Shown here piece by piece: positions 14,691 to 30,797 of a stretch of 64,000 nt of DNA. Each line of letters begins with the position of its first letter. The stretch's first letter is position 1. The translations under genes and the position numbers were made by a program. Location of the stretch: contig NZ_SWDV01000018.1 of the NCBI RefSeq assembly GCF_005877905.1, positions 62,001 through 126,000 on the forward strand. The letters run 5' to 3'. Under the pieces are notes generated by a model. The model saw only the letters and a program-made list of their open reading frames with translations, did not search any database and was not told the origin of the DNA. The stretch is from Pseudomonas nicosulfuronedens (lineage in GTDB: Bacteria; Pseudomonadota; Gammaproteobacteria; Pseudomonadales; Pseudomonadaceae).

Positions 14691-16814
14691 TCAGGCGCGG
14701 AACTGCTCCACCAATCCCTGCTGCCGGCTGGCCAGGTCGTTCAGTGAGCGACTGGCGCTGGCGGCTTGCTGCGCCTGATCGGAAATGGTCTGGGTGACGT
14801 CGCGGATGCCGGCGATGTTGCGATTGATCTCCTCGGCGACGCTGCTCTGTTCCTCTGCCGCGCTGGCGATCTGCAGGTTCATCTCGCTGATCAGGTTCAC
14901 CGCCTCGCCGATCCGGCGCAGGGCGTCGATGGCCTGGCGCGCCTGATCGACGTTGCCCTGGGCCTGGGCGAAGCTGCCCTGCATCGCGCTGGTCACTGAG
15001 TGGCCGCGAGCCTGCAGGTTCTCGATCACCTGGCGAATCTCCTCCACGGACTCCTGGGTGCGCCGGGCCAGCCCGCGTACTTCGTCCGCCACGACGGCGA
15101 AACCGCGGCCGGCATCGCCAGCGCGCGCCGCTTCGATGGCGGCGTTGAGCGCCAGCAGGTTGGTCTGCGCGGCGATGCCACAAATGACTTCGAGGATGGA
15201 GCCGATCTGCTCGTTGCTCGCCGCCAGTTGCTGCAACTCAGCCATTGCCTGGTTCATCCCGGTCGCCAGCAGGTCGATGCCGCTGTTGGTGGCGTCGAGG
15301 GTGCGGAAGCCATCGTCACAGGCCTGTTCCGCCGTACGCGCGGCTTCTGCGGCGCGCGCGGCACTGCGCGCCGAATCCTGGGCGGTGGCGGACATCTCCT
15401 GGAGCGCCGTGGCGACCATGTCGATCTCGCGGAACTGCTGCTGCATGCCGTCGCTGGTCTGCCGGGCGATCTGTGCCGAGCGATCAGCGGTGGAGTGCGC
15501 CTCGCGGGTCGCCGATTGCACGGCGGCGATGCTCGGTTGCAGCTTGTCGAGGAAGCGGTTGAAGGCGGTGGCCAGGCGGCCCAGTTCGTCGCGGCGCGGG
15601 TAGTCGAGCCGGCGGGTGAGGTCGCCTTCGCCATCGGCGATGTCCTCGAGCATGCGCGCCAGGCGCAGGATCGGCCGGCTGATGCCCAGTGCGGTCAGTG
15701 CCACCAGCAGCATGCCGAGCAGCCCGGCGGCGATGCCGACGCCAGTCTCCAGTGCGGTACTTTTCCAGCGCAGATCATCCAGCGTGCCCTTTAGACGTTC
15801 CGCCGGGGCGAGCATCACCGCGCGCGGCACACTGAGCAGGATGCCCCAGGGGGCGGCGTCCGGCACCGGCGCCAGGCTGTGCAGCACGCTGATGGATTCG
15901 CCGTCGTCGCTGGACTGCGAGCGCCCGGCGGCGATCTCGGCGAGGAGGGCCTTGTCGTCGAACCTCTGCCCCAGTTTCGAGGCATCGCCGCTGTCGCTGG
16001 CAACCAGGCCGTTGGGGCTGAGGATGCGGATGCGGCCCTGACCGTCGAACAGGCTGCGGCTGCCCTCTGCGCTGCTTTGCTGAAGCGCCGCCAGATCGAT
16101 GTCGAAGCCCACGGCGGCGATTGCCTTGCCGTTCTCCAGCAGCGGCAGGGTGACGCTGGTGACCAGCCGGCGCTGGCCTGAGGCGTCGTCGAAGTAGGGA
16201 TCGAGCACGCAGGGGCGGGCGTGCCCGGTGGAGCAGGTGAAGAAGGCGTTGTAGGGCTGACCACTGGGGCCGGGCGTGGTGTCGCCGAGCACTTGCTCGG
16301 TGCCGATCACCCGCTGGGTCTCCTTGCCGTTCTGCAGCAGGTAGAGGGCGAAGCGGCCAGTTTCATTGCTGCCCAGGTCTTCGCGGGCAGTGAACTGGCC
16401 GTCGGCGGCATCCAGCGCATCGGGCTGGAACACCAGGAACAGGCCGAGCAGCTCCGGGTGGGCGCCGAGGGTATCGGCCATCGAGTGATTGAGCGCGGTG
16501 CGCAGCGCAGTGGGGTCGAGGACGCCCTGGCGCTGTTGTGCGCGCAGGGTCTGCACCGTGCGCAGCAGTCCTTCACCGAGCAGCAGGTTGTTCTGCAGGC
16601 GCTCGCGGATCAGCAGGGCCTGCACCTGGCCCTGGGTTTCCAGGTTGTGCTGCGCGGCAACGGCGAAGAGTTCGCCGCTGTCGTGCTGGATGGTACGGCT
16701 GTCCTGCCGCGCCTGGTACAGCGAAAGGCCGATCAGGACGCTGGAGACCAGCAGCAGGCAGAGGCCCGCCAGCCAGGTGATGCGGCCCTGGATCGAAGTC
16801 AGGAGGCTGGGCAT
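14691..16814 (-). CDS. Methyl-accepting chemotaxis protein with a dCache-like periplasmic sensor
   Basis: A 707-residue chemoreceptor. It has an N-terminal membrane segment (about 12-32), a large periplasmic region (about 33-365) consistent with a double-Cache fold ([20 protein letters not shown], then AAVGFDIDL), a second membrane segment (about 366-388, ending in GISRPILRL), a HAMP domain (about 385-440) and a long cytoplasmic signalling hairpin. The invariant tip [20 protein letters not shown] is present. I do not see the R-x-W-Y signature of amino-acid-binding dCache sensors. The gene follows the porin gene by 32 bp and is probably cotranscribed with it. The ATG at 16814 has AAGAAGAG upstream. 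Confidence 0.9.
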
Positions 16815-16846
16815 GGCGGGCTCTTCTTTCTGCTGGGTGAGGGGGC

Positions 16847-18184
16847 TTAGAAGGTGGTGGAGAACATCAGCTGGCTGTACAGGTTGCTGTTGTCGTTGCC
16901 GATCTGGGTGCCGCCTTCGGCCGCGCTCTTCTTCGGCTGGTACAGGCCCACCAGCGGGATGATCATCAGGTGCTCGTTGATCGCCCATTCGGCGTAGAGG
17001 TCCAGCTCGCGGCCGTCGGTGTTGCCCAGGTCGGTGTCCAGGGTGTGGAAGTCGAAGTACTGCGCGCCGATGGAAAGGTTCTCCAGCGGGGTGACCTTGG
17101 CGCCGACGTTGTGCACGCGGGTATTGCTGTTGAACGGACCGGAGTAGTTGCCCGCCACTTCGCCCTGGAACCAGGTCCCGAAGCCACGGCTGAAGCCGTA
17201 GAAGAGCGTGTCGTAGCCTTCGGAGAAGCGGCTGAAGCGGTAGCTGACGTAGGGTTTCCAGGCGATGTCGGAGAAGGTCCAACCGGCTTCGAGGTACCAG
17301 GCGTTCTCGCTGTCGTCGCTGTACTGGGCATTGTCCTTGTCCTGCCAGGCGTATTCGCCGGAGAGGAACAGGTTTTCCACGCCGGCGTTGCCAGTGCCGC
17401 GCAGGCTGTAGGTCTTCATGTCCTTGCGGTCGAGCTGGATGGGCGAGGCGTAGCGCTCGTCAACGTCGGTGACGTCGATGTAGGTCAGGCCGAAGGTGGC
17501 TTCTGGGGCGACGTGCTCGAGGGTGGTAACGTACAGCTCGGAGTTGGCCTGGGCGCGGTTGTCCGACTTCAGGCGCATCAGGTCGCCGCGCCAGCCTTCC
17601 TTGCCGCCGATGCGCAGCACGGCGGTCTCGTCGAAAGCGCGGCGGCCGGCGAGGTAATAGGCACCGCCACGGTTGTATTCACCGTCGGCCAGGCCCTTGC
17701 CCATGTTCAGCGCGTCGCCGTCGATCAGGAAGCCGTCGCCGACCACGACGTTCTGGCGGCCGGCGGAGAGGTCGATGCCGTCCTCACCCAGCATCGGGAA
17801 CAGGTTGCCCGAGCGCCAGCCGGCGTAGGCGTCCTCGATCTTGGTGGTGCGTTCGGAGCCGTCGGTGAAGCCGGCGGCGTCGCCGTCGCCCCAGGTGCCG
17901 GAACTGATCAGGTTGAAGGCACCGTAGGCGGTACCCGCACCGCCCAGCTTCTGGTCGCCGCTCAGGCCGTACTTGATGAAACCTTCCTGCCAGGAGGACG
18001 AGCCTTCATCCAGCGTGCCAGTCATGTTGTAGCGCTCCTGGCTGTGGAACAGCCCGAAGGTCGCCGAGAGATCGGCGTTCAGGTGCGTGTCGTCGGTGGC
18101 GTACAGCTCGTAGGCGCTGGCGGAGCTGGCCCCGGCGATGAGCAGGGCGAGCAGGGTGGGGCGCAGCACGGCGGCGTGGGTCAT
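16847..18184 (-). CDS. Outer-membrane beta-barrel porin, alginate-export-family-like
   Basis: A 445-residue protein with a signal peptide ([20 protein letters not shown]). The mature part consists of alternating amphipathic strands and ends in Phe (SQLMFSTTF), the usual outer-membrane insertion signal. Segments such as [20 protein letters not shown] and [20 protein letters not shown] resemble porins assigned to the alginate-export domain family, which in many pseudomonads act as general or substrate-specific channels with no link to alginate. No alginate genes are nearby. It precedes the chemoreceptor gene and lies downstream of the AraC/kinase/lyase/permease genes on the same strand. The substrate is not known. 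Confidence 0.7.
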
Positions 18185-18320
18185 GGCGAAGGCATCCGTT
18201 GTTCTTGTCGGTTGGAGGGGATGGGTCTTCTGCCGATGCTAAGTAAGGGCTGGCGTTGTGCCGTTGCGTGTGTCTGCCAAGTGATTGGGTGTGGTTGCCA
18301 GATCCGGTGGTGTGCCTTTT

Positions 18321-18398
18321 GTAGGAGCGAGCTTGCTCGCGAACCCGCTTGACGCGGGAACTGCCGGTGGATCTGTTCGCGAGCAAGCTTGCTCCTAC
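18321..18398. repeat. REP-like inverted pair
   Basis: A plus unit (18321-18344) and a minus unit (18375-18398) of the AGCGAGCTTGCTCGC type face each other between the porin start and the AraC stop. Confidence 0.85.
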
Positions 18399-18411
18399 GA
18401 AGAGCAGAAGC

Positions 18412-19359
18412 TCAGCGCATGCGCGAGAGCAGCGACGGCTGCTCCGCATACAACCGCTTGTACAAGGCCGAGAAATGGCTGGAACTGGCGAAGCCCAGGT
18501 CCAGCGCCAGGCTGGTGATGCTCTGCTGCGGCTCCTGCTTGAGCCGGCGGCGCGCCTCGGCCAGGCGCAGGCTGAGAAAGAACTGCTGCGGCGTGCTCTG
18601 GCAGATCTGCCGGAAGCAGTACTGCAGGGTGCGCTGGCTGGTGTTCAGGCTCTGGCTCAGTTCCAGCAACGACAGTGGCTCGGAAAGGTCCGCCTGCATG
18701 CGCTCGATGGCTGCCAGCACCAGCCGGCGATGCTGCTGCAATGAGCGTGGCGCGCCCTCGCGGTCAGTGCCGGGAAGGATTTCCTCCAGCGCCTGCAGCA
18801 CGTGGCTCAGCACCAGGGCGACGGCGTGCCCGGCCTGTTGCGGATCGTCCACCCGCCACGGTTCGGCCTCGAAGACGGCGAGGGCGCCACAGAGACTGCG
18901 GCGCAGATCGCCGGCCCCCGTCGGTGAAAGTTGCAGGCGCCGTTGCTGCAGCGCGCGCTCGAACAACTCGCGCTCTTCGGTGCCGAGCAGGCGTTCCAGC
19001 TGCGGCTGGCTGAAGGTCAGGCCGAGCATGTGGATTTCCCCGGCGGCGCAGATTTCCAGCTCGCGGCCGCCTTCGAGCACCAGCAGGGTGTCGTCATGCA
19101 GGGACTGGCCGTTGAAGCGCGAATCGGCACTGGCACGCAGGGGAATACCGATCACCAGGTGTCCGGCCGGTGGCGCCATGTTCTCGTGCAGGTGCAGGTT
19201 GGAGTGTTCGTAGATCAGCGAGGCACCGGGCAGCTGCACATGCAGCAGCTCCGCCTGCAGGCGGCCATGGCCGAGCTGGGTGTAGTCCTGGCTCCAGCCG
19301 GCGAGGGCGCAGGCCAGTTCATCGGAGTCGGTTGCCTGGTGGCGGGCTATGCCGGTCAT
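18412..19359 (-). CDS. AraC-family regulator, probable regulator of the adjacent amino-alcohol genes
   Basis: A 315-residue regulator with an N-terminal sensory region (about 1-200) and a C-terminal AraC domain (about 212-315). The two helix-turn-helix units read SLLELSQSLNTSQRTLQYCF and ITSLALDLGFASSSHFSALY. The N-terminal half, with PAGHLVIGIPLRASADSRFN and LEGGRELEICAAGEIHMLGL, resembles EutR-like and related amine-catabolism regulators. It lies 92 bp behind the kinase gene on the same strand, separated from it by a strong 13-bp hairpin. A role as regulator of the permease-lyase-kinase operon is inferred from position. Confidence 0.85.
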   Translation of the reverse strand: MTGIARHQATDSDELACALAGWSQDYTQLGHGRLQAELLHVQLPGASLIYEHSNLHLHENMAPPAGHLVIGIPLRASADSRFNGQSLHDDTLLVLEGGRELEICAAGEIHMLGLTFSQPQLERLLGTEERELFERALQQRRLQLSPTGAGDLRRSLCGALAVFEAEPWRVDDPQQAGHAVALVLSHVLQALEEILPGTDREGAPRSLQQHRRLVLAAIERMQADLSEPLSLLELSQSLNTSQRTLQYCFRQICQSTPQQFFLSLRLAEARRRLKQEPQQSITSLALDLGFASSSHFSALYKRLYAEQPSLLSRMR

Positions 19360-19398
19360 GGCGGTTCACCTCGGTGGTGCGCCGAGTATCGGTCAGTG

Positions 19399-19428
19399 CT
19401 GGCGTGCAGGCTTGTGCCTGCACGCCAG
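19399..19428 (-). terminator. Perfect 13-bp hairpin between the kinase and AraC genes
   Basis: CTGGCGTGCAGGC (19399-19411) and GCCTGCACGCCAG (19416-19428) are perfectly complementary with a TTGT loop. No T-run follows on the minus strand, so it may be an attenuating or RNA-stabilising hairpin rather than a full terminator. Confidence 0.5.
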
Positions 19429-19451
19429 GGTGTTGCGGCGCTCTGCCAGTT

Positions 19452-20471
19452 TCAGCGGTCGGCGAGGTAGGCGGCGGCCAGTGTACAGGCGCGTTCGATC
19501 AGCATGGGGGCCAGTTCCCGTGCGGTTTCGCTGTTGCGCCGGGTGTGCACCCAGCCCAGGTAGGTCGTGCCGCGCAGCGCGAGGAACAGTGGCAGGGCGG
19601 CCCGGTCGGCGGCGGACAGCGGTTTGACCGAGTCGTAGCCGGCCAGCAGCGCCGCCTGGATCTGCGCCAGGCGCGGATCGTCCAGGCAGAAGTACAGCGC
19701 GGTGGCCAACTCGAACATGTGCCAGCCGAAGCCAGCATCGTCGAAGTCGATCAGCTGCAGTTCGCCGCCTTCGAGCAACAGGTTCTCCGGCACCAGGTCG
19801 GCGTGGATCATGCCGAAGTTGCCCAGGCTGCGGCCGTAACGGCGCAGGTCGAGGCGGGCTTCCTGGCGCGCGCGCTGGAGCAGTTCGCGTTGCTCGTCGC
19901 TGAGCAGGTCCAGCTCCCAGAAGCGTCCCCAGAACGGATTGGCGCCGATCAGACCTTCCTCATCCCAGGCGTGCCGGGTGAATTCGTTGGGTTGGCGCCA
20001 CTGGGCCGAATTCAGGTGGATGCGCGCGGCGACGGCGCCGGCCTGGTGGAACAGCGCCTCGATGTCGCCATCGGCGCTCAGGCCCTGTTCGGCGGAGCCC
20101 AGGGTGCTGCCGCCAAGCCAGCCGAGCATGTCGACGAAGCGCGGCTCCGCCAGTGCGGTGCTGCGTACCTCGGCCAGGTGTTCGCCGCTGCGGGTGCGGA
20201 TGATGCTGGGCACGCCGATGCCGCCGGCGGCCAGTTGCTCCATCCAGGTCAGCTCGGAACGCAGCGCCGCCTCGCTGTGGTAGCCGCCGCGGTGCACGCG
20301 CAGGGCGCTACGGGTGCCGTCGCTGCGGGTGGCGCAGAACACCGCGTTCTCGCGGTACTTGAGCAGTTCCAGGCCGACGAAGTCGCCGTCCCAGTGGTGC
20401 AGGGCGTCCAGCGCCAGGTCGCGCAGGCAGGCGATCTGCTGGTCATGGTCGAGCAAAGAGAAGTCAGTCAT
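19452..20471 (-). CDS. APH-fold small-molecule kinase, probable amino-alcohol kinase
   Basis: A 339-residue kinase of the aminoglycoside phosphotransferase fold. The catalytic loop is MIHADLVPENLL (His-x-Asp) and the metal-binding segment is LQLIDFDDAGFGWHMFELAT. This family includes hydroxylysine kinase, choline/ethanolamine kinases and homoserine kinase II. The immediate upstream partner is a PLP enzyme of the phospho-lyase group and the next an amine permease. Phosphorylation of ethanolamine, 1-aminopropan-2-ol or 5-hydroxylysine is therefore the likely reaction (inference). ATG 20471 has GAAGGAAA upstream and starts 11 bp after the lyase stop. Confidence 0.8.
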   Translation of the reverse strand: MTDFSLLDHDQQIACLRDLALDALHHWDGDFVGLELLKYRENAVFCATRSDGTRSALRVHRGGYHSEAALRSELTWMEQLAAGGIGVPSIIRTRSGEHLAEVRSTALAEPRFVDMLGWLGGSTLGSAEQGLSADGDIEALFHQAGAVAARIHLNSAQWRQPNEFTRHAWDEEGLIGANPFWGRFWELDLLSDEQRELLQRARQEARLDLRRYGRSLGNFGMIHADLVPENLLLEGGELQLIDFDDAGFGWHMFELATALYFCLDDPRLAQIQAALLAGYDSVKPLSAADRAALPLFLALRGTTYLGWVHTRRNSETARELAPMLIERACTLAAAYLADR

Positions 20472-20482
20472 GCCGGTTTCCT

Positions 20483-21757
20483 TCAAAGCTCGCCCAGGAC
20501 CTGGTCCAGGGTGTGGATGAACAGCTCGCCGTGTTCGCCCTGGAAGGGCAGTGGCGGGCGAATCTTGAGGATGTTGTCGTCGCCGCCGATCTTGCTGATC
20601 AACACGCCGCGCTGGCGCATCGCGTTGACGATGCGCCGTGCCTCCGGGCCTGCCGGCTCGCGGCTGGTGCGGTCGCGCACCAGTTCCACGGCGAAGAACA
20701 GGCCCTGGCCGCGCACGTCGCCGATGATCGAGTGGCGCTCGGCGAGTCGATGCAGTTCGGCGCTGAGGCGAGCTCCCTGGCGCCGGGCGTTGCCTTGCAG
20801 GTCCTCTTCGGCGATCACGTCGAGCACCGCCTGGCCGACGGCCGCGGCCACGGGCGAGCCGCCGAAGGTGTTGAAGTACAGGTTGGCGCGGCCGAAGGAT
20901 TCGACGCGCTCGCGGCTGGTCACCAGACCGGCCAGGGGGAAACCGTTGCCCATGGGCTTGCCGAGGGTGACGATGTCCGGCACCAGCGGGTGTGACTGGT
21001 GGCCCCACAGGTGATCACCGGTGCGGGCGAAGCCCGATTGCACCTCGTCGGCGATCAGCAGGCCGCCGGCCTCGCGCACCAGCTTGGCGACGCGCTCCAG
21101 GTAGCCGGCCGGCAGGCGCGGGATGCCTTCGTTGGCGAACAGCGTGTCGATCAACATGGCCGCGAGGCCTACGCCGGCCGCCTGCAGCTCGGCAATGGCT
21201 TCGGCGACCTTGGCGACATAGCGGTCGGCGACCTGCTCGGGCGTGCCGTCCGCGTGGTACAGGCAGGGGATAGGCACGGCCCGCGCATGGGCCGAGAACG
21301 GCTCCGAACTGGGCAGCGCGGTGGTCACCGCCGCTAGCGTGGTGGTGTTGCCGTGGTAGTTGTAGTCGCTGACGATGATGCCCTTGTTGCCGGTGGCGAA
21401 GCGCGCCATGCGCAGGGCCAGTTCGTTGGCCTCGCTGCCGGTGCAGGTGAACATCAGGCTGTCCAGCGGGTCGGCGAAGGTCGCGGTGAGGCTTTCGGCG
21501 TAGCGCACCACGCGTTCATTGAGGTAGCGGGTGTGGATGTTCAGCGTCGCCGCCTGTTCGGCCATGGCGGCTACCACTCTGGGGTGGCAGTGACCGACGC
21601 AGGGCACGTTGTTGTAGCAGTCCAGGTAGCGCTTGCCGGCGGCGTCGATGAGCCAGACGCCTTCGCCTTGCACCAGTTCCAGCGGCTCGTCATAGAACAG
21701 CGGCGAAGCATCGCCCATGACCTGGTGGCGGCGTTGCAGCAGGGTTGCTTCAGACAT
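20483..21757 (-). CDS. Class III aminotransferase-fold PLP enzyme, probable amino-alcohol-phosphate phospho-lyase
   Basis: A 424-residue fold-type I PLP enzyme. The N-terminal segment YLDCYNNVPCVGHCHPRVV closely matches the signature of animal ethanolamine-phosphate and phosphohydroxylysine phospho-lyases (Y-L-D-C-x-N-N-V-x-x-V-G-H-C-H-P). The PLP aspartate lies in ADEVQSGFARTG and the Schiff-base lysine in VTLGKPMGNGFPLAG. Such enzymes (EC 4.2.3.2 type) remove phosphate and ammonia from O-phospho-amino-alcohols to give aldehydes. Pairing with a kinase and an amine permease fits this better than a transaminase role. ATG 21757 is preferred to ATG 21766 because GGAG is spaced for it. The start overlaps the permease end by 8 bp. 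Confidence 0.8.
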   Translation of the reverse strand: MSEATLLQRRHQVMGDASPLFYDEPLELVQGEGVWLIDAAGKRYLDCYNNVPCVGHCHPRVVAAMAEQAATLNIHTRYLNERVVRYAESLTATFADPLDSLMFTCTGSEANELALRMARFATGNKGIIVSDYNYHGNTTTLAAVTTALPSSEPFSAHARAVPIPCLYHADGTPEQVADRYVAKVAEAIAELQAAGVGLAAMLIDTLFANEGIPRLPAGYLERVAKLVREAGGLLIADEVQSGFARTGDHLWGHQSHPLVPDIVTLGKPMGNGFPLAGLVTSRERVESFGRANLYFNTFGGSPVAAAVGQAVLDVIAEEDLQGNARRQGARLSAELHRLAERHSIIGDVRGQGLFFAVELVRDRTSREPAGPEARRIVNAMRQRGVLISKIGGDDNILKIRPPLPFQGEHGELFIHTLDQVLGEL

Positions 21758-23069
21758 TCTCGGCATTCTCCAGGGGCTTGCCGGCGCGGCTCGCGGCGCG
21801 CAGCAGGTAGTTGAGGATCAGTGCGACGACCACCAGGGCCAGGGCGCTGAGCATCGCCACTTCCAGCTGGAAGCAGGCAGCGATCACCACCAGCGTCAGC
21901 AGCATGCCGACGCTGGCCACGGCCGGGCCGCCGCGCAGGCGGAAGGGGCGCACCAGGCCGGGCTGGGTGCGGTGCAGGCGCAGGTAGGCGGCGAACAGCA
22001 CCAGGTGGCAGCTGCCCAGCAGCAGGACGATGCACAGCAGGAGTTTTTCCGGCGGCACCAGGGTGAGCGGCAGGCCGATCACGGTCAGCACCAGCAGGGC
22101 CACGTAGGGCGAGCCACGACGGTTGGTGCGGGCGAGAGCGGCGGGGAAGAAGCCGTCGCGGGCCAGGGCGAACAGTTGGCGGGAGGCGGAGAACACCACC
22201 GAGAAGAAGGTCGCCAGCAGGCCGCACACGGCGCCGGAGCCGACCAGCAAGGGCAGCCAGTCGCGCTCGCCGTAGAGTCCGCCGTGGGTCATGGCGGCGT
22301 ACAGCGGATCACCCGCGTTGCCGACCACTTCCACGCCGGCAGCGCCCGGCGCGCTGATTACCACGGTCAGGGCGGTCAGCAGCAGGGTGCCGACGGCGGC
22401 GATGATCCCGCGCGGCATGCTGCGGCCCGGTTCGGCGGCTTCCTCGGCAGCGGAGGCGACCTGCTCCAGGCAGATGAACATCCAGATGGCGAAGGGGACG
22501 CAGGCGAACACGCCGGAGACGCTCACGCCCGGCAGTGCGCTGCCGGATGTAGCCAGCAGATTCTCCCAGTGCACGTGGGGCAGCATGGCGCCGCCGAAGG
22601 CGAGCAGTGCGATGGCTGCCACCGCGCCGGCCAGCAGGGTCAGCCCGAGAGCCTCGCCCACGCCGATGATGTGGATGCCGATGATCACCGCGAACAGGCC
22701 GATGCGTACCGGCCAGCCGCCGAAGCCGAACACCGATTCCATGTAGGCGGCGAGGAAGTTGGCGGCCGCGCCGGTGCCGATGGTCAAAGCCAGTGCACAG
22801 GCGGCACCGACCAGGTAGCCGACGAAGGGTCCGAAGGCCAGCTGTGCGTAGGCGAACACGCCGCCAGCGTGGGGCCGGGCGGTGGAGAGTTCGCACACGC
22901 ACAGTGCCAGGCCGCCGCAGAGCACGGCCATCAGCAGGGTGGCGACGAGCATGTTGGCCCAGCCGCTACTGGCCAGGCCGTAGTTCCAGCCGGAGAACTG
23001 CCCGGCGATGACCAGTGAAATGCCGAGCCCGGCGATCTGGGGCCAGCGGAGTACGCCTTGTTTGAGCAT
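21750..23069 (-). CDS. APC-family amine permease, ethanolamine-permease-like
   Basis: A 439-residue membrane protein with about 12 hydrophobic segments. The first (QIAGLGISLVIAGQFSGWNY) is the conserved amine-binding region of the amino acid-polyamine-organocation superfamily. Features such as ELSTARPHAGGVFAYAQLAF and SASRQLFALARDGFFP match the ethanolamine permease subgroup found in Pseudomonas. It is the first gene of the permease-lyase-kinase set, with AAGGGA before the ATG, and its end overlaps the lyase start. Uptake of an amino alcohol is inferred from family and context. Confidence 0.85.
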   Translation of the reverse strand: MLKQGVLRWPQIAGLGISLVIAGQFSGWNYGLASSGWANMLVATLLMAVLCGGLALCVCELSTARPHAGGVFAYAQLAFGPFVGYLVGAACALALTIGTGAAANFLAAYMESVFGFGGWPVRIGLFAVIIGIHIIGVGEALGLTLLAGAVAAIALLAFGGAMLPHVHWENLLATSGSALPGVSVSGVFACVPFAIWMFICLEQVASAAEEAAEPGRSMPRGIIAAVGTLLLTALTVVISAPGAAGVEVVGNAGDPLYAAMTHGGLYGERDWLPLLVGSGAVCGLLATFFSVVFSASRQLFALARDGFFPAALARTNRRGSPYVALLVLTVIGLPLTLVPPEKLLLCIVLLLGSCHLVLFAAYLRLHRTQPGLVRPFRLRGGPAVASVGMLLTLVVIAACFQLEVAMLSALALVVVALILNYLLRAASRAGKPLENAENV

Positions 23070-23534: not shown

Positions 23535-23558
23535 AAAAAAACCGGCCCGAAGGCCGGT
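23535..23558 (-). terminator. Rho-independent terminator of paaZ
   Basis: ACCGGCC (23541-23547) pairs with GGCCGGT (23552-23558). On the minus strand the stem is followed by a T-run (A at 23535-23541). It is 35 bp after the paaZ stop. Confidence 0.85.
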
Positions 23559-23592
23559 CGAGAATGACACTGGAGTTGCAGCGATCAGCGCA

Positions 23593-25644
23593 TCACGCGC
23601 GCTTGAGCACCAGGGTCAGAATGTCGTAGCTGGCGACCAGTTCACCCAGCTGGTTGGTGACTTCCACGTCCCAGGCCACCACGCCCTGCGGTTCGCCCTT
23701 GGGGCTCTTCTTGCCCTGGTCGATCTTGCGCTTGCAGGTCAGGCGGGCCTGGATGGTGTCGCCGATGCCCACCGGGTTGATGAAGCGCAGGGTGTCCAGG
23801 CCGTAGTTGGCCAGCACCGGGCCGACGCCGGGGGAGACGAACAGGCCGGCCGCCGCCGAGAGCACGAAGTAGCCGTGGGCGATACGCTTGCCGAACTGCG
23901 AGTCCTTCGCCGCCAGCTCGTCGAAGTGCATGTAGAAGTGGTCGCCCGACAGGCAGCCGAAGTTCACCAGGTCGGCCTCGGTGACGGTACGGCGATGGGT
24001 CAGCAGCGATTCGCCGATCTTCAGATCGTCGAAGTAGCGGCGGAACGGGTGCACCTCGGTCTCGTACACCTTGGCGCCGCGCACGTATTCGCCGGTGACG
24101 GCCATCAACATGCTCGGCGAGCCCTGCACGGCGGTACGTTGCAGGTAGTGCTTCACTGCGCGCAGGCCACCCAGCTCTTCACCACCGCCGGCGCGACCGG
24201 GGCCGCCGTGCTTGAGCACCGGCAGCGGCGAGCCGTGGCCGGTGGATTCGGCGGCGGATTCGCGGTCGAGGATATGCAGGCGACCGTGCAGTGCGCCCAT
24301 GACCGGAACGACTTTCGCGGCGACCTGCGGGTCGCGGGTGATCAGGCTGGCCACCAGGCTGCCCTTGCCGCGTGCGGCCAGGGCCACTGCCTCGTCGATG
24401 TCGTCGTAGGTCATCAGGGTGGTCACCGGGCCGAAGGCCTCGATGTCGTGGGCACCGCCTTCGGCGTGCGGATCACGGCTGCGCAGCAGGGTCGGGGCGA
24501 AGAACGCGCCTTCGGCCACGCCGTCGCCGCGTGGAGCGAAACCGTCCTTCGCGCCGAAGAGCAGATCGCTGGACTTCAGCAGGGCTTCCACGCGCTCGGC
24601 GACGTCGGCCTGCTGCGCGTGGGAGGCCAGGGCGCCCATCTTCACGCCTTCCACCGATGGGTCACCGACCACGACCTTGGCCAGGCGCTCACGCAGGCGT
24701 TCGGCGACGGCGTCGACGTGCTTGGCGGGGACGATGGCGCGGCGGATGGCGGTGCATTTCTGCCCGGCCTTGACGGTCATCTCACGGGCTACTTCCTTGA
24801 CGAAGAGGTCGAATTCTTCATCGTCCGGGGTGACGTCCGGGGCAAGGATGGCGCAGTTGAGCGAATCGGCCTCGGCGTTGAACGGCACCGAGTTGCGGAT
24901 CAGGTTGGCGTTCACGCGCAGCTTGGCGGCGGTGTCGGCGGAGCCGGTGAAGGTCACCACGTCCTGGCCTTGCAGACGGTCCAGCAGGTCGCCGGTGCCA
25001 CCGATGATCAGCTGCAGGCTGCCAGCCGGGAGCAGGCCGGACTCGTGCATCACGCGCACGGCGGCTTCAGTGATGTAGCTGGTGGCAGTGGCCGGTTTGA
25101 CGATGCAGGGCATGCCGGCGAGGAAGCTCGGCGCGAACTTCTCCAGCATCCCCCAGATGGGGAAGTTGAAGGCGTTGATGTGCACGGCGATACCGCCGCG
25201 CGGCACCAGGATGTGGCTGCCGGCGAACTTGCCGGTCTTGCCCAGCGGCATGGCCGGGCCTTCGTGGACGACGTTGCCCGAGGGCAGCTCGCGGCCGCCG
25301 ACGCCGGCGTAGGCGAACAGCGTACCGGCGCCGCCTTCGATGTCGATCCAGCTGTCGGCGCGAGTGGCGCCGCTGTGGCGGGAAATCTCGTAGAGCTGTT
25401 CCTTGCGCTCGGTGAGGTACAGCGCCAGGGCCTTCAGGCGTTGGGCGCGCTGCTGGAAGTCCATGGACATCAGTTCTTTCAGGCCCTGCTCGCGGGCATG
25501 GGCGACGGCTTCGGCGAAATCCAGTGCCTCTTCGTGGGTGCGTGCCACGGTCTGGCCGTTGAGCGCGCTTCGCAGCGCCTGGGCGCCGTGCTGGCCGACC
25601 CAGCGGCCGCCGATGAAACTTTGCAGGATTGGCTCTTGGGCCAT
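23593..25644 (-). CDS. paaZ: Bifunctional oxepin-CoA hydrolase / 3-oxo-5,6-dehydrosuberyl-CoA semialdehyde dehydrogenase
   Basis: A 683-residue fusion that opens the oxepin ring and oxidises the resulting aldehyde in the phenylacetate pathway. Residues 1 to about 515 are an aldehyde dehydrogenase domain with the catalytic Cys297 in VKAGQKCTAIRRA. Residues about 530-683 are a MaoC-like (R)-hydratase domain with the hydratase motif CLSGDHFYMHFDELAAKDS and GKRIAHGYF. Both halves appear intact. It is separated from paaE by a 354-bp gap filled with repeats, so it may have its own promoter. Confidence 0.95.
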   Translation of the reverse strand: MAQEPILQSFIGGRWVGQHGAQALRSALNGQTVARTHEEALDFAEAVAHAREQGLKELMSMDFQQRAQRLKALALYLTERKEQLYEISRHSGATRADSWIDIEGGAGTLFAYAGVGGRELPSGNVVHEGPAMPLGKTGKFAGSHILVPRGGIAVHINAFNFPIWGMLEKFAPSFLAGMPCIVKPATATSYITEAAVRVMHESGLLPAGSLQLIIGGTGDLLDRLQGQDVVTFTGSADTAAKLRVNANLIRNSVPFNAEADSLNCAILAPDVTPDDEEFDLFVKEVAREMTVKAGQKCTAIRRAIVPAKHVDAVAERLRERLAKVVVGDPSVEGVKMGALASHAQQADVAERVEALLKSSDLLFGAKDGFAPRGDGVAEGAFFAPTLLRSRDPHAEGGAHDIEAFGPVTTLMTYDDIDEAVALAARGKGSLVASLITRDPQVAAKVVPVMGALHGRLHILDRESAAESTGHGSPLPVLKHGGPGRAGGGEELGGLRAVKHYLQRTAVQGSPSMLMAVTGEYVRGAKVYETEVHPFRRYFDDLKIGESLLTHRRTVTEADLVNFGCLSGDHFYMHFDELAAKDSQFGKRIAHGYFVLSAAAGLFVSPGVGPVLANYGLDTLRFINPVGIGDTIQARLTCKRKIDQGKKSPKGEPQGVVAWDVEVTNQLGELVASYDILTLVLKRA

Positions 25645-25998: not shown

Positions 25999-27075
25999 TC
26001 AGAGCTGGTCGAAATCGAGTACGACGTTGTCGCTGACCGGATACGCCTGGCAGCTCAGCACGTAGCCGGCCGCCACTTCGTAATCCTCCAGGGCGAAGTT
26101 GCTGTCCATTTCCACTTCTCCGGAAACCACCTTGCACTTGCAGGTCGAGCACACGCCGGCCTTGCAGGAGTAGGGCAGTTCGGCGCCCTGGGCATTGCCG
26201 GCGTCGAGCACGCTGACGCTGTTGCGGGCCAGTTCGAAGGACAGCTCGCGGCCATCGCTGATCACGGTGATCCGGCTCTTCGCGCTGTCGACTGCGGCGG
26301 CGGCCTGGCGGGCTTCGCGCTTGCTCTCGCTGCCGGCGGCGGCGAACAGTTCGAAGTGGATGCGCTCGGCCGGCATGCCATTGCCCTTGAGCTGGTCGCG
26401 CACGGTCTCGGTCATTGCCTGCGGGCCGCAGATGAAGGCAGCGTCCAGGCTCTTCACGTCGAGCCAGCGGCTGAACAGCTGGCCGCACTTGTCGGCGTCG
26501 ATGCGGCCGTTGTAGAGGTCGACGTCCTGCTGTTCGCGGCTGAACACGAAGATCAGGTTGAGGCGCTGCAGGTAGCGGTTCTTCAGGTCTTCGAGCTGTT
26601 CGCGGAACATCGCGGCGTTGCTGGAGCGGTTGCCGTAGAGCAGGGTGACGCGGCTGTTCGGCTCGGTTTCCAGGGTGGTCTTGACGATCGACAGGATCGG
26701 CGTGATGCCGCTGCCGGCGGCGACCGCCAGGTAGTTGCCGTGGCGTGCCGGGTCCAGTGCGACGTTGAAGTGGCCGGCTGGCGGCATGACTTCCAGGCTG
26801 GCGCCGACCTTCAGCGACTCGTTGGCGTAGGCAGAAAAACGCCCGCCCGGCACGCGCTTGATCGCCACGCGCAGCTCGCCATCATTCACGCCGCTGCAGA
26901 TGGAGTAGGAGCGGCGCACTTCCTCGCCGTCGAGCTGGGTGCGCATGACCAGGTGCTGGCCGTGCTGGAAGCGGAAGCTGTCGGCCAGGTCCGTCGGGAC
27001 GTCGAAGGCGATGGACACGGCGTCGCGGGTTTCGGCGCGTACTTCCTTGATTTTCAGGCTGTGGAACTTGCTCAT
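25999..27075 (-). CDS. paaE: Phenylacetyl-CoA 1,2-epoxidase, reductase subunit
   Basis: A 358-residue oxidoreductase that passes electrons from NADPH to the PaaA diiron centre. The N-terminal half is a ferredoxin-reductase-type FAD domain (RRSYSICSG) and NAD(P) domain (AAGSGITPILSIVKTTL). The C-terminal part is a plant-type 2Fe-2S ferredoxin domain with Cys304, Cys309, Cys312 and Cys342. GGAGAAG precedes ATG 27075, which lies 25 bp after the paaD stop. A longer open frame upstream is not used. Confidence 0.95.
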   Translation of the reverse strand: MSKFHSLKIKEVRAETRDAVSIAFDVPTDLADSFRFQHGQHLVMRTQLDGEEVRRSYSICSGVNDGELRVAIKRVPGGRFSAYANESLKVGASLEVMPPAGHFNVALDPARHGNYLAVAAGSGITPILSIVKTTLETEPNSRVTLLYGNRSSNAAMFREQLEDLKNRYLQRLNLIFVFSREQQDVDLYNGRIDADKCGQLFSRWLDVKSLDAAFICGPQAMTETVRDQLKGNGMPAERIHFELFAAAGSESKREARQAAAAVDSAKSRITVISDGRELSFELARNSVSVLDAGNAQGAELPYSCKAGVCSTCKCKVVSGEVEMDSNFALEDYEVAAGYVLSCQAYPVSDNVVLDFDQL

Positions 27076-27100
27076 TGTTCTTCTCCGGCGGCGTTGCCGC

Positions 27101-27634
27101 TCAGATGCACTTGAAGTAGTCGAACGGCTCGCGGCAGTCGACACAGCGGTACAGCGCCTTGCAGGCGGTCGAGCCGAACTCGCTGAGCAGCTCGGTGTGC
27201 GCGCTGCCGCACTGTGGGCAGCACACTTCCGGGCTTTCACCGAGCAGGCTGCGCTTGCTGGTGCTGCCGGACGGCGGTGCGATGCCGTAGACGCGCAGCG
27301 CTTCGCGGCCGCTGTCGCTGATCCAGTCGGTGGTCCACGCCGGGTTCAGCCGGCGCTCCAGTTGCGGCGCGGCGAAGCCGGCGTGCTCCAGGGCGTGCTG
27401 GATGTCCTGCTCGATGACCTCGGTGGCCGGGCAACCGGAGTACGTCGGGGTGACTACCACGTGCAGATGCCCGTCCTGCCAGTCGAGGCCGCGGACGATG
27501 CCGAGGTCGACCACGCTGACCACCGGCACTTCCGGGTCCATCACCGCGCCGAGCACGTGCCAGGCGCGGCTGAGGTCGTCAGCCGTGCCGGCACGGGCGC
27601 CGCGATCGCTGGTAATCAGCTCACCAGGTCGCAT
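27101..27634 (-). CDS. paaD: Phenylacetate degradation protein PaaD (MIP18-like, with zinc-ribbon tail)
   Basis: A 177-residue protein needed for a working epoxidase, probably in iron-sulfur or diiron assembly. A DUF59/MIP18-like domain (VMDPEVPVVSVVDLGIVRGL, then PTYSGCPATEVIEQDI) covers about residues 20-110. The tail has two CxxC pairs (CCPQCGSAH and YRCVDCREPF) plus a final Cys that suggest a zinc site. ATG 27634 overlaps the end of paaC by 14 bp and has only a weak ribosome-binding site, consistent with coupled translation. Confidence 0.92.
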   Translation of the reverse strand: MRPGELITSDRGARAGTADDLSRAWHVLGAVMDPEVPVVSVVDLGIVRGLDWQDGHLHVVVTPTYSGCPATEVIEQDIQHALEHAGFAAPQLERRLNPAWTTDWISDSGREALRVYGIAPPSGSTSKRSLLGESPEVCCPQCGSAHTELLSEFGSTACKALYRCVDCREPFDYFKCI

Positions 27635-28382
27635 CGGGGTAGGCCCGTTGGAGGAACTGCATCTCGGCCAGCAGAATGCCCAGGTGCTCGGTATGCAGGC
27701 CACGGCGGCCGCTGAGGTAGAAGTTCACCGCCGGTTCGGGCACCGGCAGGGTCGCGGCGGCGAAGATGTCGGCGACCTTGGACTTCCAGGCGGCGGCCAG
27801 CTCGGTCGGGTTCGGTGCGATCCCGGCTTCGAACAGGCGCTGCTCGATGTCGTCTGCGTTGCAGAGTTCGACGGTAAAACGCCACACCTGCGGAATCGCC
27901 GCGAGCATGCGCGCATGGCTTTGCTCGGTGCCATCGCCCAGGCGCTGCATCCATTCGCCGGAGCGACGCAGGTGGTAGGTGACTTCCTTCAGGCCCTTGG
28001 CGGCGATGGCGGCGATGCGCTCGTCGCTGGAGCTGCTCAGGGCGTGCAGTACATGGAAGTGCCAGGTGTCATAGAGGAACTGCTTGGTGATGGTCACGGC
28101 GAAGTCGCCGTTGGGCTGCTCGACCAGCAACAGGTTGCGGAAGGCCCGCTCATCGCGGCGGAAGGCCAGGGCATCGGCGTCGCGGCCGTCGTCCAGCAGT
28201 TCCACGGCGTATTCGTACCAGTTGCGTGCCTGGCCCACGAGGTCGAGGCCGACGTTCATCAGCGCCAGTTCTTCTTCCAGCGCCGGGGCGTGGCCGCACC
28301 ATTCGCAAAGGCGCTGGCCCTGAATCAGGGCGCTGTCGGCGAGGCGCAGCAGGTATTCGATCTTGTCGTTGTTCGGGTTCAT
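27621..28382 (-). CDS. paaC: Phenylacetyl-CoA 1,2-epoxidase, structural subunit PaaC
   Basis: A 253-residue ferritin-like partner of PaaA. It has the fold of the catalytic subunit but acts as the structural half of the oxygenase core. Segments LADSALIQGQRLCEWCGHAP, LGLVGQARNWYEYAVELLDD-like helices and TWHFHVLHALS are characteristic. It lies 10 bp after paaB. Confidence 0.93.
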   Translation of the reverse strand: MNPNNDKIEYLLRLADSALIQGQRLCEWCGHAPALEEELALMNVGLDLVGQARNWYEYAVELLDDGRDADALAFRRDERAFRNLLLVEQPNGDFAVTITKQFLYDTWHFHVLHALSSSSDERIAAIAAKGLKEVTYHLRRSGEWMQRLGDGTEQSHARMLAAIPQVWRFTVELCNADDIEQRLFEAGIAPNPTELAAAWKSKVADIFAAATLPVPEPAVNFYLSGRRGLHTEHLGILLAEMQFLQRAYPDATW

Positions 28383-28392
28383 CGCACGCGTC

Positions 28393-28674
28393 TCACATGT
28401 GGCCGACTTCGGGCGGCAGCTCGTAGAAGCTGGCGTGGCGGTAGACCTTGTCCTGCGACGGATCGAACAGCGGATCCTTTTCGTCGGGGGAGGAGGCGGT
28501 GATCAGCGCGGAGGGCACGACCCACAGGCTCACGCCTTCGTTGCGGCGGGTGTACAGCTCGCGGGCGTTCTCGATGGCCATGGCGGCGTCGGCGGCGTGG
28601 ACGCTGCCGACGTGCTTGTGGTTCAGGCCGTGTTTGCTACGCACGAATACTTCGAACAAAGTCCACTCGGACAT
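28393..28674 (-). CDS. paaB: Phenylacetyl-CoA 1,2-epoxidase subunit PaaB
   Basis: A 93-residue subunit that bridges the PaaAC units. The start MSEWTLFEVFVRSKHGLNHK and the middle VGSVHAADAAMAIENARELY are the family signature, and the length is normal. The ATG at 28674 has GAGAGAAAAG upstream and lies 20 bp after the paaA stop. Confidence 0.95.
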   Translation of the reverse strand: MSEWTLFEVFVRSKHGLNHKHVGSVHAADAAMAIENARELYTRRNEGVSLWVVPSALITASSPDEKDPLFDPSQDKVYRHASFYELPPEVGHM

Positions 28675-28694
28675 GACTTTTCTCTCCTCGCGGC

Positions 28695-29687
28695 TCAGGC
28701 GGCGTCTTTTTTCTGTTGTTGTTTGCGGGCATAGGCGACCGCAGCTTCGCGGACCCAGGCGCCGTCTTCGATGGCTTTGCGGCGGGTAGCGACGCGCTCG
28801 GTGTTGCACGGGCCGTTGCCCTTGAGCACTTCGTAGAACTCTTCCCACTGGATGTCGCCGAAGTCGTAGTGGCCGCGCTCCTCGTTCCACTTCAGGTCCG
28901 GGTCCGGGGCGGTGCAGCCGAGCAGTTCGAGCTGCGGCACGGTCTGGTCGACGAAGCGCTGGCGCAGCTCGTCGTTGCTTTGCCGCTTGATCTTCCAGGC
29001 CATGGACTGGGCGCTGTTGGGGGAGTCGGCGTCGCTGGGACCGAACATCATCAGGGCCGGCCACCAGAGGCGGTTGATGGCGTCCTGGACCATGTCCTTC
29101 TGCGCCTGGTTGCCGTGGCGCATCATGGTCAGGAGGATTTCGTAGCCCTGGCGCTGGTGGAAACTCTCTTCCTTGCAGATGCGGATCATCGCGCGCGAGT
29201 ACGGGCCGTAGGAGGTGCGCTGCAGCACCACCTGGTTGACGATCGCCGCGCCATCCACCAGCCAGCCCACCGCGCCCATGTCGGCCCAGTTCAGCGTCGG
29301 GTAGTTGAAGATGCTCGAGTACTTGGCCTTGCCGCTGTGCAGCTTGGCGATCTCGGCGTCACGGTCGGCGCCCAGGGTTTCCATGGCGCTGTAGAGGTAG
29401 AGGCCGTGGCCAGCCTCGTCCTGGATCTTCGCCATCAGCTGCAGTTTGCGCTTGAGGGTCGGGGCGCGGGTCACCCAGTTGCCCTCGGGCAGCATGCCGA
29501 CGATCTCGGAGTGGGCGTGCTGGGAAATCTGCCGGATCAGCGTCTGCCGGTAGGCGTCGGGCATCCAGTTCTTTGCCTCGATCTTCACCTCGGCATCGAT
29601 CTTTTCCTGGAAGGCACGTTCCTCGGGGGACATCTCCTCCAGCGCCTTGATGCGCTTCACGCCGGTCTCAACCAGTTGTGCGTACAT
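28695..29687 (-). CDS. paaA: Phenylacetyl-CoA 1,2-epoxidase catalytic subunit PaaA
   Basis: The 330-residue diiron subunit that epoxidises the ring of phenylacetyl-CoA. The two helix motifs with iron ligands are visible: [19 protein letters not shown] and [19 protein letters not shown] precedes the ATG at 29687. It is the first gene of paaABCDE, and its leader carries a perfect inverted GATACAGAA repeat. Confidence 0.96.
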
Positions 29688-30015
29688 GCTGTGTCTCCAG
29701 CCTTTTGTCTTGTTCGTGGGACGGCCTTGGCCATGGCGGTATTTTTAAATGATACAGAAATGAATGTCTAACACTAAATGATGTGTCGTAATTGGATTCT
29801 GTATCGCTTTAGCAGTTTTTGGCGTTGTTGTGGGCGCAAGAGGGAGCGCGTTTCATGGATTTAAATACATGAAAATCGCTGATTGTGCGGGTATTTGATG
29901 GCGTTATGAGGCGTAACCGTTTGCGTGCTGTGCGCACTGCCCATGCCTTGGAAATACGATGAAGCGATACGAAAATTTATTCTTATGAGTGAATCGTATG
30001 CGGATGTTAGGGGTT
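29688..30015 (-). promoter_or_regulatory. paaA control region with an inverted GATACAGAA repeat
   Basis: GATACAGAA (29751-29759) and TTCTGTATC (29797-29805) form a perfect 9-bp inverted repeat with arms 46 bp apart, centred about 90 bp before the paaA ATG. The interval is strongly AT-rich, unlike the neighbouring genes. A further box GCGATACGAAAA begins at 29965. The same GATACA core precedes paaF and paaY, so these are candidate PaaX operators (inference). Confidence 0.6.
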
Positions 30016-30093
30016 GTAGGAGCGAGCTTGCTCGCGAACCCACCCAGCGCCGGAGCTGCCGGGAAAATCGTTCGAGAGCAAGCTCGCTCCTAC
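30016..30093. repeat. REP-like inverted pair
   Basis: A plus unit (30016-30039) and a minus unit (30070-30093, with TTCGAGAGC in place of TTCGCGAGC) between the DUF1428 stop and the paaA leader. Confidence 0.85.
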
Positions 30094-30124
30094 AAAGGGC
30101 CGTGCGAGTTGGCAGGGGCCGGCA

Positions 30125-30773: not shown

Positions 30774-30797
30774 AAAGCCCCGCCGAGGCGGGGCTTT
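30774..30797 (-). terminator. Rho-independent terminator of the paaFGHIJK operon
   Basis: AAAGCCCCGCC (30774-30784) and GGCGGGGCTTT (30787-30797) form a perfect 11-bp stem. On the minus strand it is followed by T-rich sequence. It lies 18 bp after the paaK stop. Confidence 0.88.

What the first reader, a model, noticed from the sequence alone, without database searches (positions are those of the whole stretch)
14691..23069. One-strand module for an amino alcohol: permease, phospho-lyase, kinase, AraC regulator, porin and chemoreceptor
Six genes follow one another on the minus strand. The PLP enzyme carries the N-N-V-x-x-V-G-H-C-H-P signature of ethanolamine-phosphate/phosphohydroxylysine phospho-lyases, and the kinase is APH-fold like hydroxylysine kinase. 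The permease resembles ethanolamine permeases. A kinase plus phospho-lyase route for 1-aminopropan-2-ol and ethanolamine has been described biochemically in Pseudomonas, but the genes are rarely assigned. A porin and a chemoreceptor follow on the same strand, which would extend the module to sensing and outer-membrane passage. The first four genes are strongly linked; joining the porin and receptor is inference.
Basis: partly seen in the sequence, partly recalled or inferred. Interest (0 to 1): 0.7.

Follow-up and report, generated by a model that had tools for sequence, protein, structure and literature searches.

The report
Pseudomonas pathway for an aromatic amino-alcohol
A six-gene bacterial module looks built to sense, import and break down an aromatic amino-alcohol (most likely 2-phenylethanolamine) by phosphorylating it and then removing phosphate and ammonia to make phenylacetaldehyde, rather than to use ethanolamine as first thought.

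Summary
The six minus-strand genes at 14691-23069 are real: permease, PLP phospho-lyase, APH-fold kinase, EutR-like AraC regulator, outer-membrane barrel and chemoreceptor. The kinase/phospho-lyase reading holds; the proposed substrate (ethanolamine, 1-aminopropan-2-ol) probably does not. Evidence for an aromatic amino alcohol giving phenylacetaldehyde: (1) the module lies beside a paa (phenylacetate) cluster, FeaR and a FeaB-like dehydrogenase; (2) in one draw of 398 Pseudomonadaceae, 28 of 28 genomes with the lyase have paaA, against 58 of 370 without; (3) three actinobacterial proteins fuse the lyase to a phenylacetaldehyde dehydrogenase above the curated cut-off; (4) 25 of 36 close loci have a paa, FeaB, FeaR or amine dehydrogenase gene nearby; (5) the genome has three EutB genes and two better ethanolamine permeases elsewhere; (6) the receptor keeps TlpQ's amine-binding residues but lacks its second acid. 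Against: adjacency is patchy (11 of those 28), a marine subclade lacks paaA (0 of 10), two distant relatives checked sit by aldehyde dehydrogenases of another type, and nothing was assayed. Best substrate: 2-phenylethanolamine. New variant of a known kind.

The parts
21750..23069 (-). APC-family permease, related to ethanolamine permeases; proposed importer of the amino alcohol
   Evidence: Pfam AA_permease_2 97.5 bits; TIGR00908 318.9 bits, below its 381.75 cut-off; present in 36 of 36 orthologous loci
20483..21757 (-). PLP phospho-lyase (class-III transaminase fold); ATG at 21766 also possible
   Evidence: phmmer best hits 5g4i 456 bits and 6tor 340 bits; NNVPCVGHCHP, K267; tree
19452..20471 (-). 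APH-fold small-molecule kinase; proposed amino-alcohol kinase
   Evidence: Pfam APH 78.5 bits; best solved relative 6ef6 170.7 bits; present in 36 of 36 orthologous loci
18412..19359 (-). AraC-family regulator, nearest curated model EutR (below cut-off)
   Evidence: HTH_18; NF007522 EutR 101.8 bits, cut-off 319
16847..18184 (-). Outer-membrane beta-barrel (porin-like)
   Evidence: Sub-threshold Alginate_exp; low-confidence barrel model, pLDDT 58; AlgE and porin folds nearest
14691..16814 (-). Chemoreceptor with TlpQ/McpU-type double-Cache sensor
   Evidence: MCPsignal, HAMP; sensor matches TlpQ 6fu4 and McpU 6f9g; amine residues conserved
23540..23559 (-). Terminator-like hairpin between paaZ and the permease gene
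   Evidence: count in the region not above shuffles
23593..25644 (-). paaZ, the gene next to the module in the flanking phenylacetate cluster (context)
   Evidence: TIGR02278 990.6 bits, cut-off 562.8
25999..37111 (-). paaE, paaC, paaA, paaK, 3-oxoadipyl-CoA thiolase, paaH, paaG, paaF (context)
   Evidence: these eight pass curated NCBIfam cut-offs; a further frame at 27101-27649 (presumed paaD) matched no model at E 1e-60, and paaB was not scanned
38003..39100 (+). paaX repressor (context; the real start is probably later, the match begins at residue 82)
   Evidence: TIGR02277 329.2 bits, cut-off 264.55
39255..40181 (+). FeaR-type AraC regulator of aromatic amine use (context)
   Evidence: NF007243 370.9 bits, cut-off 199
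40930..42420 (+). FeaB/StyD-like aldehyde dehydrogenase, proposed next enzyme (context)
   Evidence: best NCBIfam model is phenylacetaldehyde dehydrogenase StyD, 670.2 bits, below its 850 cut-off

Best explanation
The module catabolises an aromatic beta-amino alcohol, most likely 2-phenylethanolamine (2-amino-1-phenylethanol). The barrel and permease bring it in and the TlpQ-like receptor steers toward it. The kinase phosphorylates the benzylic hydroxyl with ATP. The PLP lyase then eliminates phosphate and releases ammonia, giving phenylacetaldehyde. The FeaB-like dehydrogenase oxidises this to phenylacetate, which enters the adjacent paa pathway. Shown: gene identities by homology, context, co-occurrence, the fusions, receptor residues. 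Inferred: substrate, order of steps, transport roles, regulation.
For: Flanking paa cluster, FeaR and FeaB-like gene. In one draw of 398 Pseudomonadaceae, 28 have the lyase and 86 have paaA: all 28 of 28 versus 58 of 370, hypergeometric p 4e-21. Fusion of phospho-lyase to a phenylacetaldehyde dehydrogenase in three genomes, all three above the 800-bit cut-off: 882.5, 858.2, 876.4, one inside a paa cluster. FeaB, FeaR, paa or amine dehydrogenase genes by the lyase in 25 of 36 close loci and 10 of 39 more distant ones, against 0 of 8 other lyase loci of the same genus at 51-55% identity. TTQ amine dehydrogenase lies between paaZ and the permease in two sister genomes. paaA in 9 of 9 genomes of the actinobacterial clade and 10 of 11 of the Woeseia-type clade. 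Own genome has three EutB and two over-cut-off ethanolamine permeases, both beside EutB. Receptor keeps Y158, Y208, D210, D239 of TlpQ in 19 of 19 aligned sequences (18 of 26 loci with a sensor hit, plus the window) and lacks an acid at E170 in 19 of 19 (residue roles from passages of PMC6234866). HpaD over cut-off in 9 of 29 module genomes, not in this one.
Against: No assay. Adjacency is patchy: 8 of 14 in-genus genomes have paaZ near; in the 28-genome sample 11 have a paa, fea or amine dehydrogenase gene in the stretch held; 7 of 8 loci of another genus-level group have none in about 20 kb. A SAR86-type subclade has kinase and lyase but paaA in 0 of 10 genomes, most of them small, probably incomplete assemblies. 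The aldehyde dehydrogenases beside a Woeseiaceae and a Mycolicibacterium lyase match the aminobutyraldehyde dehydrogenase model best (376 against 344 bits, 313 against 294). The nearest solved kinase, 6ef6, is one I recall as (S)-1-amino-2-propanol kinase, and permease and regulator resemble ethanolamine ones. The window FeaB is below the StyD cut-off. The co-occurrence p-value ignores phylogeny (three genera). The E170 column depends on alignment (Val or Gln).
Confidence: 0.7

Rival explanations
1. Aliphatic route: the module uses 1-aminopropan-2-ol or ethanolamine through the phosphate to propionaldehyde or acetaldehyde; neighbouring paa genes are coincidental.
For: Kinase resembles 6ef6, recalled as (S)-1-amino-2-propanol kinase; permease and AraC resemble ethanolamine permease and EutR; lyase related to ethanolamine-phosphate phospho-lyase 6tor; patchy adjacency to aromatic genes.
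Against: 28 of 28 co-occurrence with paaA; fusion to phenylacetaldehyde dehydrogenase; ethanolamine genes elsewhere in the genome; permease and regulator below curated cut-offs.
Confidence: 0.14
2. The aromatic ring is hydroxylated (octopamine, noradrenaline) and the aldehyde is 4-hydroxy- or 3,4-dihydroxyphenylacetaldehyde.
For: FeaR and aromatic amine dehydrogenase systems also serve tyramine-type amines (established knowledge); hmgA- and fah-like genes lie near FeaB in the window (recognised from sequence, not scanned).
Against: paaA, part of the route for unsubstituted phenylacetyl-CoA, in all 28 module genomes; HpaD over cut-off in only 9 of 29 and absent here. Homogentisate routes from 4-hydroxyphenylacetate were not tested.
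Confidence: 0.08
3. The substrate is an indolic analogue (2-amino-1-indol-3-yl-ethanol) giving indole-3-acetaldehyde.
For: In P. fluorescens-type loci such as L090 the module lies near a Rieske dioxygenase, HpaC-like reductase and amidase cluster that recalls iac genes for indoleacetate.
Against: I saw no such cluster beside the module in the window (frames; no dedicated search); the fused dehydrogenases are phenylacetaldehyde-type; co-occurrence is with paaA.
Confidence: 0.04
4. The enzymes are a broad-range amino-alcohol scavenging pair whose products are drained by whichever aldehyde dehydrogenase the host has.
For: Context varies among lineages, two relatives have another type of aldehyde dehydrogenase, and SAR86-type relatives lack paaA.
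Against: Strict paaA co-occurrence in the Pseudomonadaceae sample and fusion with one kind of dehydrogenase.
Confidence: 0.04

Closest known systems
Phospho-lyase of PDB 5g4i/5g4j (recalled as A1RDF1 of Arthrobacter) and ethanolamine-phosphate phospho-lyase 6tor (recalled as the human enzyme)
   Same: Same enzyme family; 456 and 340 bits to the window protein; same chemistry inferred
   Different: 6tor falls outside the 59-row clade that holds the window protein; 5g4i lies in its actinobacterial branch, so its natural substrate may also be aromatic (inference)
6ef6 kinase, recalled as (S)-1-amino-2-propanol kinase of the M. smegmatis aminoacetone microcompartment
   Same: APH-fold kinase, 170.7 bits over residues 19-337; paired with a phospho-lyase there too (recalled)
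   Different: Window context is paa/fea; microcompartment genes were not looked for
FeaB/FeaR and TTQ aromatic amine dehydrogenase route for phenylethylamine
   Same: Same proposed aldehyde product and downstream path to phenylacetate
   Different: Amine dehydrogenase oxidises the amine directly; the module would use ATP and a lyase on beta-hydroxylated amines
TlpQ and McpU biogenic-amine chemoreceptors
   Same: Sensor fold and amine-binding residues; TlpQ binds 2-phenylethylamine and tyramine (passages of PMC10653921)
   Different: Acidic residue at E170 missing in 19 of 19 module receptors aligned

Membership tests
PLP phospho-lyase (ETNPPL / 5g4i type) | Sequence closer to phospho-lyases than to class-III transaminases | tested here: met
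   456 and 340 bits to phospho-lyases; next is dialkylglycine decarboxylase 192 bits
PLP phospho-lyase (ETNPPL / 5g4i type) | Phylogenetic placement away from true transaminases | tested here: inconclusive
   Tree of 71 rows held no transaminase outgroup
PLP phospho-lyase (ETNPPL / 5g4i type) | Activity on an O-phospho amino alcohol | not testable with these tools
   needs enzyme assay
(S)-1-amino-2-propanol kinase (6ef6) | Nearly full-length homology with kinase motifs | tested here: met
   170.7 bits over residues 19-337; IHADL and IDFDD
(S)-1-amino-2-propanol kinase (6ef6) | Substrate 1-amino-2-propanol | not testable with these tools
   needs enzyme assay
Ethanolamine permease TIGR00908 | Score above curated cut-off 381.75 | tested here: not met
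   318.9 bits; two other genes of the genome score 630.6 and 612.1
EutR regulator NF007522 | Score above curated cut-off 319 | tested here: not met
   101.8 bits
TlpQ/McpU amine chemoreceptor | Homologous sensor with amine-binding Tyr158, Tyr208, Asp210, Asp239 | tested here: met
   6fu4 237 bits; all four residues in 19 of 19
TlpQ/McpU amine chemoreceptor | Acidic residue at Glu170 for the second nitrogen | tested here: not met
   Val in the multiple alignment in 19 of 19; Gln in pairwise alignments of the window receptor
FeaR regulator NF007243 (window 39255-40181) | Score above curated cut-off 199 | tested here: met
   370.9 bits
Phenylacetaldehyde dehydrogenase StyD NF045735 (window 40930-42420) | Score above curated cut-off 850 | tested here: not met
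   670.2 bits, still the best of the models listed
Phenylacetaldehyde dehydrogenase StyD NF045736 (actinobacterial fusions) | Score above curated cut-off 800 | tested here: met
   882.5, 858.2, 876.4 bits for 3 of 3 fusions
Aminoacetone-type bacterial microcompartment | Shell protein genes beside kinase and lyase | not tested
   no shell-protein scan was run

The most novel reading that the evidence does not exclude
A dedicated catabolic route for beta-hydroxylated aromatic amines, in Pseudomonadota and Actinomycetota, in which an ATP-dependent kinase and a PLP phospho-lyase turn 2-phenylethanolamine into phenylacetaldehyde. Some actinobacteria have made lyase and aldehyde dehydrogenase one protein, and in Pseudomonas the route carries its own regulator, transporters and a TlpQ-derived chemoreceptor re-tuned to monoamines. 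The crystallised 5g4i phospho-lyase would be one of these enzymes.
Probability: 0.55. Interest if true: 0.72.

Novelty: new variant of a known kind. Interest (0 to 1): 0.62.

Why it matters
It assigns a specific, testable substrate to a kinase/phospho-lyase pair whose family names (aminotransferase, aminoglycoside phosphotransferase) mislead. If right, bacteria deal with beta-hydroxy aromatic amines by phosphorylation and elimination rather than by oxidising the amine, and the aldehyde joins the known phenylacetate route. It would link a chemoreceptor family for biogenic amines to a matching catabolic operon and give a natural role to a solved phospho-lyase structure. The fusion proteins offer a one-protein assay.

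Tried and rejected
Plain ethanolamine was rejected because of the EutB genes and better ethanolamine permeases elsewhere in the genome. A homoprotocatechuate route was made less likely by HpaD in only 9 of 29 module genomes. Co-transcription with paa is doubted because of the hairpin after paaZ, though such sites were not enriched, and because 6 of 14 in-genus genomes lack paa adjacency. The consensus promoter scan found nothing. The barrel model was too poor (pLDDT 58) to say what it passes. The Woeseia-type dehydrogenase chains match methylamine dehydrogenase models; only the Pseudomonas heavy chain of L083 was compared with solved aromatic amine dehydrogenase, which it matches better than methylamine dehydrogenase (170 against 146 bits). 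Literature: ten searches; among the papers listed I saw none on a phenylethanolamine kinase/phospho-lyase route. Several searches held far more papers than they listed (538 and 902), and only open-licence PMC papers are held. I saw those listings, plus passages of PMC6620236, PMC10653921 and PMC6234866.
Full report
WHAT IS THERE. Six genes lie on the minus strand at 14691-23069: APC permease (21750-23069), class-III PLP enzyme (20483-21757), APH-fold kinase (19452-20471), AraC regulator (18412-19359), outer-membrane barrel (16847-18184) and chemoreceptor (14691-16814). Permease and lyase genes overlap by 8 bp and the kinase follows 11 bp later; the AraC gene follows after 92 bp; barrel and receptor are 32 bp apart after a 227 bp gap. 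The window lies in G000, a 6.68 Mb genome; the named lyase relatives nearest to it include P. nitroreducens (95%) and P. citronellolis (89%), so it is a Pseudomonas of that group.

THE ENZYMES. The PLP enzyme's best solved relatives are phospho-lyases 5g4i (456 bits) and 6tor (340 bits); the next is dialkylglycine decarboxylase at 192 bits. It carries NNVPCVGHCHP and K267. The kinase's best solved relative is 6ef6 (170.7 bits), named only 'aminoglycoside phosphotransferase' in the output; that it is the (S)-1-amino-2-propanol kinase of Mycobacterium smegmatis is my recall. So a kinase plus phospho-lyase route for an amino alcohol is well supported as chemistry; the substrate is the question.

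WHY NOT ETHANOLAMINE. The genome has three EutB genes (681-734 bits, cut-off 25) and two ethanolamine permeases over the cut-off (630.6 and 612.1 bits), each beside an EutB gene; the module permease is third at 319 bits, under the cut-off of 381.75. The AraC protein is nearest EutR but at 101.8 bits against a cut-off of 319. The module thus looks like a relative of ethanolamine systems turned to a substituted ethanolamine.

CONTEXT IN THE WINDOW. Immediately upstream is paaZ (990.6 bits, cut-off 562.8), then paaE, paaC, paaA, paaK, 3-oxoadipyl-CoA thiolase, paaH, paaG, paaF and the repressor paaX: 9 of 10 frames scanned pass curated cut-offs, and the tenth, a presumed paaD, matched no model at E 1e-60. 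Then come FeaR (370.9 bits, cut-off 199) and an aldehyde dehydrogenase whose best model is phenylacetaldehyde dehydrogenase StyD (670.2 bits, cut-off 850, so not formally a member). A phospho-lyase acting on O-phospho-phenylethanolamine would release phenylacetaldehyde, the substrate that this island is built to use.

CO-OCCURRENCE. In one draw of 398 Pseudomonadaceae genomes (same handles in both searches) the lyase (E at most 1e-155) is in 28 and paaA (E at most 1e-100) in 86. All 28 of 28 have paaA, against 58 of 370 of the rest (hypergeometric p 4e-21, not corrected for phylogeny; the 28 fall in three genera as 14, 7 and 7). Within the window's own genus, 15 of 25 genomes have the lyase gene (one copy, G024, is broken) and all 15 have paaA, against 6 of 10 without (p 0.017). 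In more distant relatives (clades) paaA is in 9 of 9 genomes of the actinobacterial clade, 10 of 11 of the Woeseia-type clade (the eleventh, a metagenome bin, has paaK on the same locus as the lyase), 1 of 1 Burkholderiales (L082), 1 of 1 of L108, but in 0 of 10 of a SAR86-type subclade and in 2 of 7 genomes whose lyase falls outside the larger clade. The SAR86-type subclade is unexplained: small, probably incomplete genomes, or another substrate. HpaD, for the homoprotocatechuate route, passes its cut-off in 9 of 29 module genomes and not in this one.

NEIGHBOURHOODS. Of 75 named loci, 36 are close orthologues (69% identity or more): kinase and permease in 36 of 36, barrel in 29, receptor in 26, and at least one of FeaB, FeaR, paa or amine dehydrogenase in 25; 10 of the 39 more distant loci have one (several loci are truncated). 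In P. akapageensis (L083) FeaB and FeaR are divergent from permease-lyase-kinase-barrel-receptor, with TTQ amine dehydrogenase chains beside them; the heavy chain is nearer aromatic than methylamine dehydrogenase. In two sister genomes (L050, L054) such chains lie between paaZ and the permease. In the Woeseia-type clade 6 of 11 loci pair lyase and kinase with such chains, but there they are named only as methylamine dehydrogenase and the aldehyde dehydrogenase of L105 matches the aminobutyraldehyde model best (376 against 344 bits for StyD); the same holds for a partial frame of L131 in Mycolicibacterium (313 against 294). As a control, 8 other lyase loci of the same genus (51-55% identity, one of them in the window's genome, one (L068) inside the larger clade of the tree) show no such gene. 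Also against the reading, only 8 of 14 in-genus genomes have paaZ near the module, 11 of the 28 sampled genomes have a paa, fea or amine dehydrogenase gene in the stretch held (two contigs are under 5 kb), and in another genus-level group 7 of 8 loci have none of the queried aromatic genes in about 20 kb and none of the 8 has barrel or receptor. The core is therefore permease-lyase-kinase, with barrel, receptor and regulators as frequent accessories.

FUSION. In Streptomyces torulosus (L118), Geodermatophilus tzadiensis (L123/L182) and a third genome (G618, L166) the phospho-lyase is fused, over the full query length and without stops, to an aldehyde dehydrogenase. All three dehydrogenase domains pass the curated cut-off (800) for phenylacetaldehyde dehydrogenase: 882.5, 876.4 and 858.2 bits. 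The S. torulosus copy sits among paa genes; in G. tzadiensis paaA is on the same contig about 17 kb away; in G618 it is on another contig. The fusion is rare: 2 of 249 genomes of the Streptomyces family, S. torulosus included. In a quick tree (SH-aLRT support only, some long branches) the Pseudomonas/Burkholderiales clade (97) is sister to this actinobacterial clade (94), which also holds 5g4i, and these with the Woeseia and SAR86-type branches form a 59-row clade (98) apart from 6tor and the window genome's own paralogue.

RECEPTOR. The sensor is a double-Cache domain whose best solved relatives are TlpQ and McpU (237 bits for 6fu4 and 195 for 6f9g; model pLDDT 84.8; Foldseek top hits 6fu4, 9kp3, 6f9g). 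In TlpQ, Tyr208, Asp210 and Asp239 bind the primary amine, Tyr158 works through a water, and Glu170 with Asp210 binds the imidazole nitrogens (passages of PMC6234866). Tyr158, Tyr208, Asp210 and Asp239 are kept in 19 of 19 module receptors aligned, while Glu170 is replaced by Val in 19 of 19 (pairwise alignments of the window receptor put Gln there). This suits a monoamine with a neutral or aromatic tail. TlpQ itself binds 2-phenylethylamine and tyramine (passages of PMC10653921).

MECHANISM. Proposed order, all inferred from the above: barrel and permease import; kinase makes O-phospho-2-phenylethanolamine; lyase gives phenylacetaldehyde, ammonia and phosphate; FeaB-like dehydrogenase gives phenylacetate; PaaK and the paa pathway complete it. 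Chemistry class: near certain. Aromatic product: about 0.8. 2-phenylethanolamine in particular: about 0.7.

NOVELTY. Kinase plus phospho-lyase routes are known in kind; I saw no aromatic one feeding phenylacetaldehyde among the papers listed by ten searches of the open-licence library, which list only part of what they match and leave subscription journals unseen. I class it as a new variant of a known kind.

Noticed in passing
G000:C4:233752-235005 (L063:7986-9308): The genome holds a second phospho-lyase (55% identical) directly after a frame that looks like an APH kinase and near a frame that looks like a substrate-binding protein (both recognised by eye, not scanned). A lyase at 51-56% identity is in 22 of 25 genomes of the genus. 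It probably serves a different amino alcohol.
   Followed up: partly
G003:C33 (L068:4998-10079): A divergent AraC-permease-kinase-lyase set (27, 42, 33 and 52% identical) in a genome of the same genus that lacks the window's lyase.
   Followed up: no
L120, L122, L124, L126-L129, L132, L133, L139: SAR86-type and other marine gammaproteobacteria carry the kinase-lyase pair without paaA (0 of 10 genomes); substrate unknown.
   Followed up: partly
L090:13249-21267: In P. fluorescens-type loci such as L090 a Rieske dioxygenase cluster with HpaC-like reductase, amidase and FeaR lies near the module; it recalls iac genes for indoleacetate breakdown.
   Followed up: partly
G024:C1:2810331-2811591: The lyase gene of this relative is in two pieces with a stop inside, while kinase, permease and the other neighbours are present.
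   Followed up: no
window 18185-18411 and 23070-23592: REP-like palindromes (GAGCAAGCTTGCTCGCGAA type) sit in the two larger gaps that bound the permease-lyase-kinase-AraC block (read).
   Followed up: no
window 2857-4767: A 636-codon frame that looks like a sugar-isomerase-type domain fused to a glyoxalase-type domain (dehydroshikimate dehydratase-like, recalled), near TetR, shikimate dehydrogenase-like and MFS frames: possibly a quinate/shikimate cluster.
   Followed up: no
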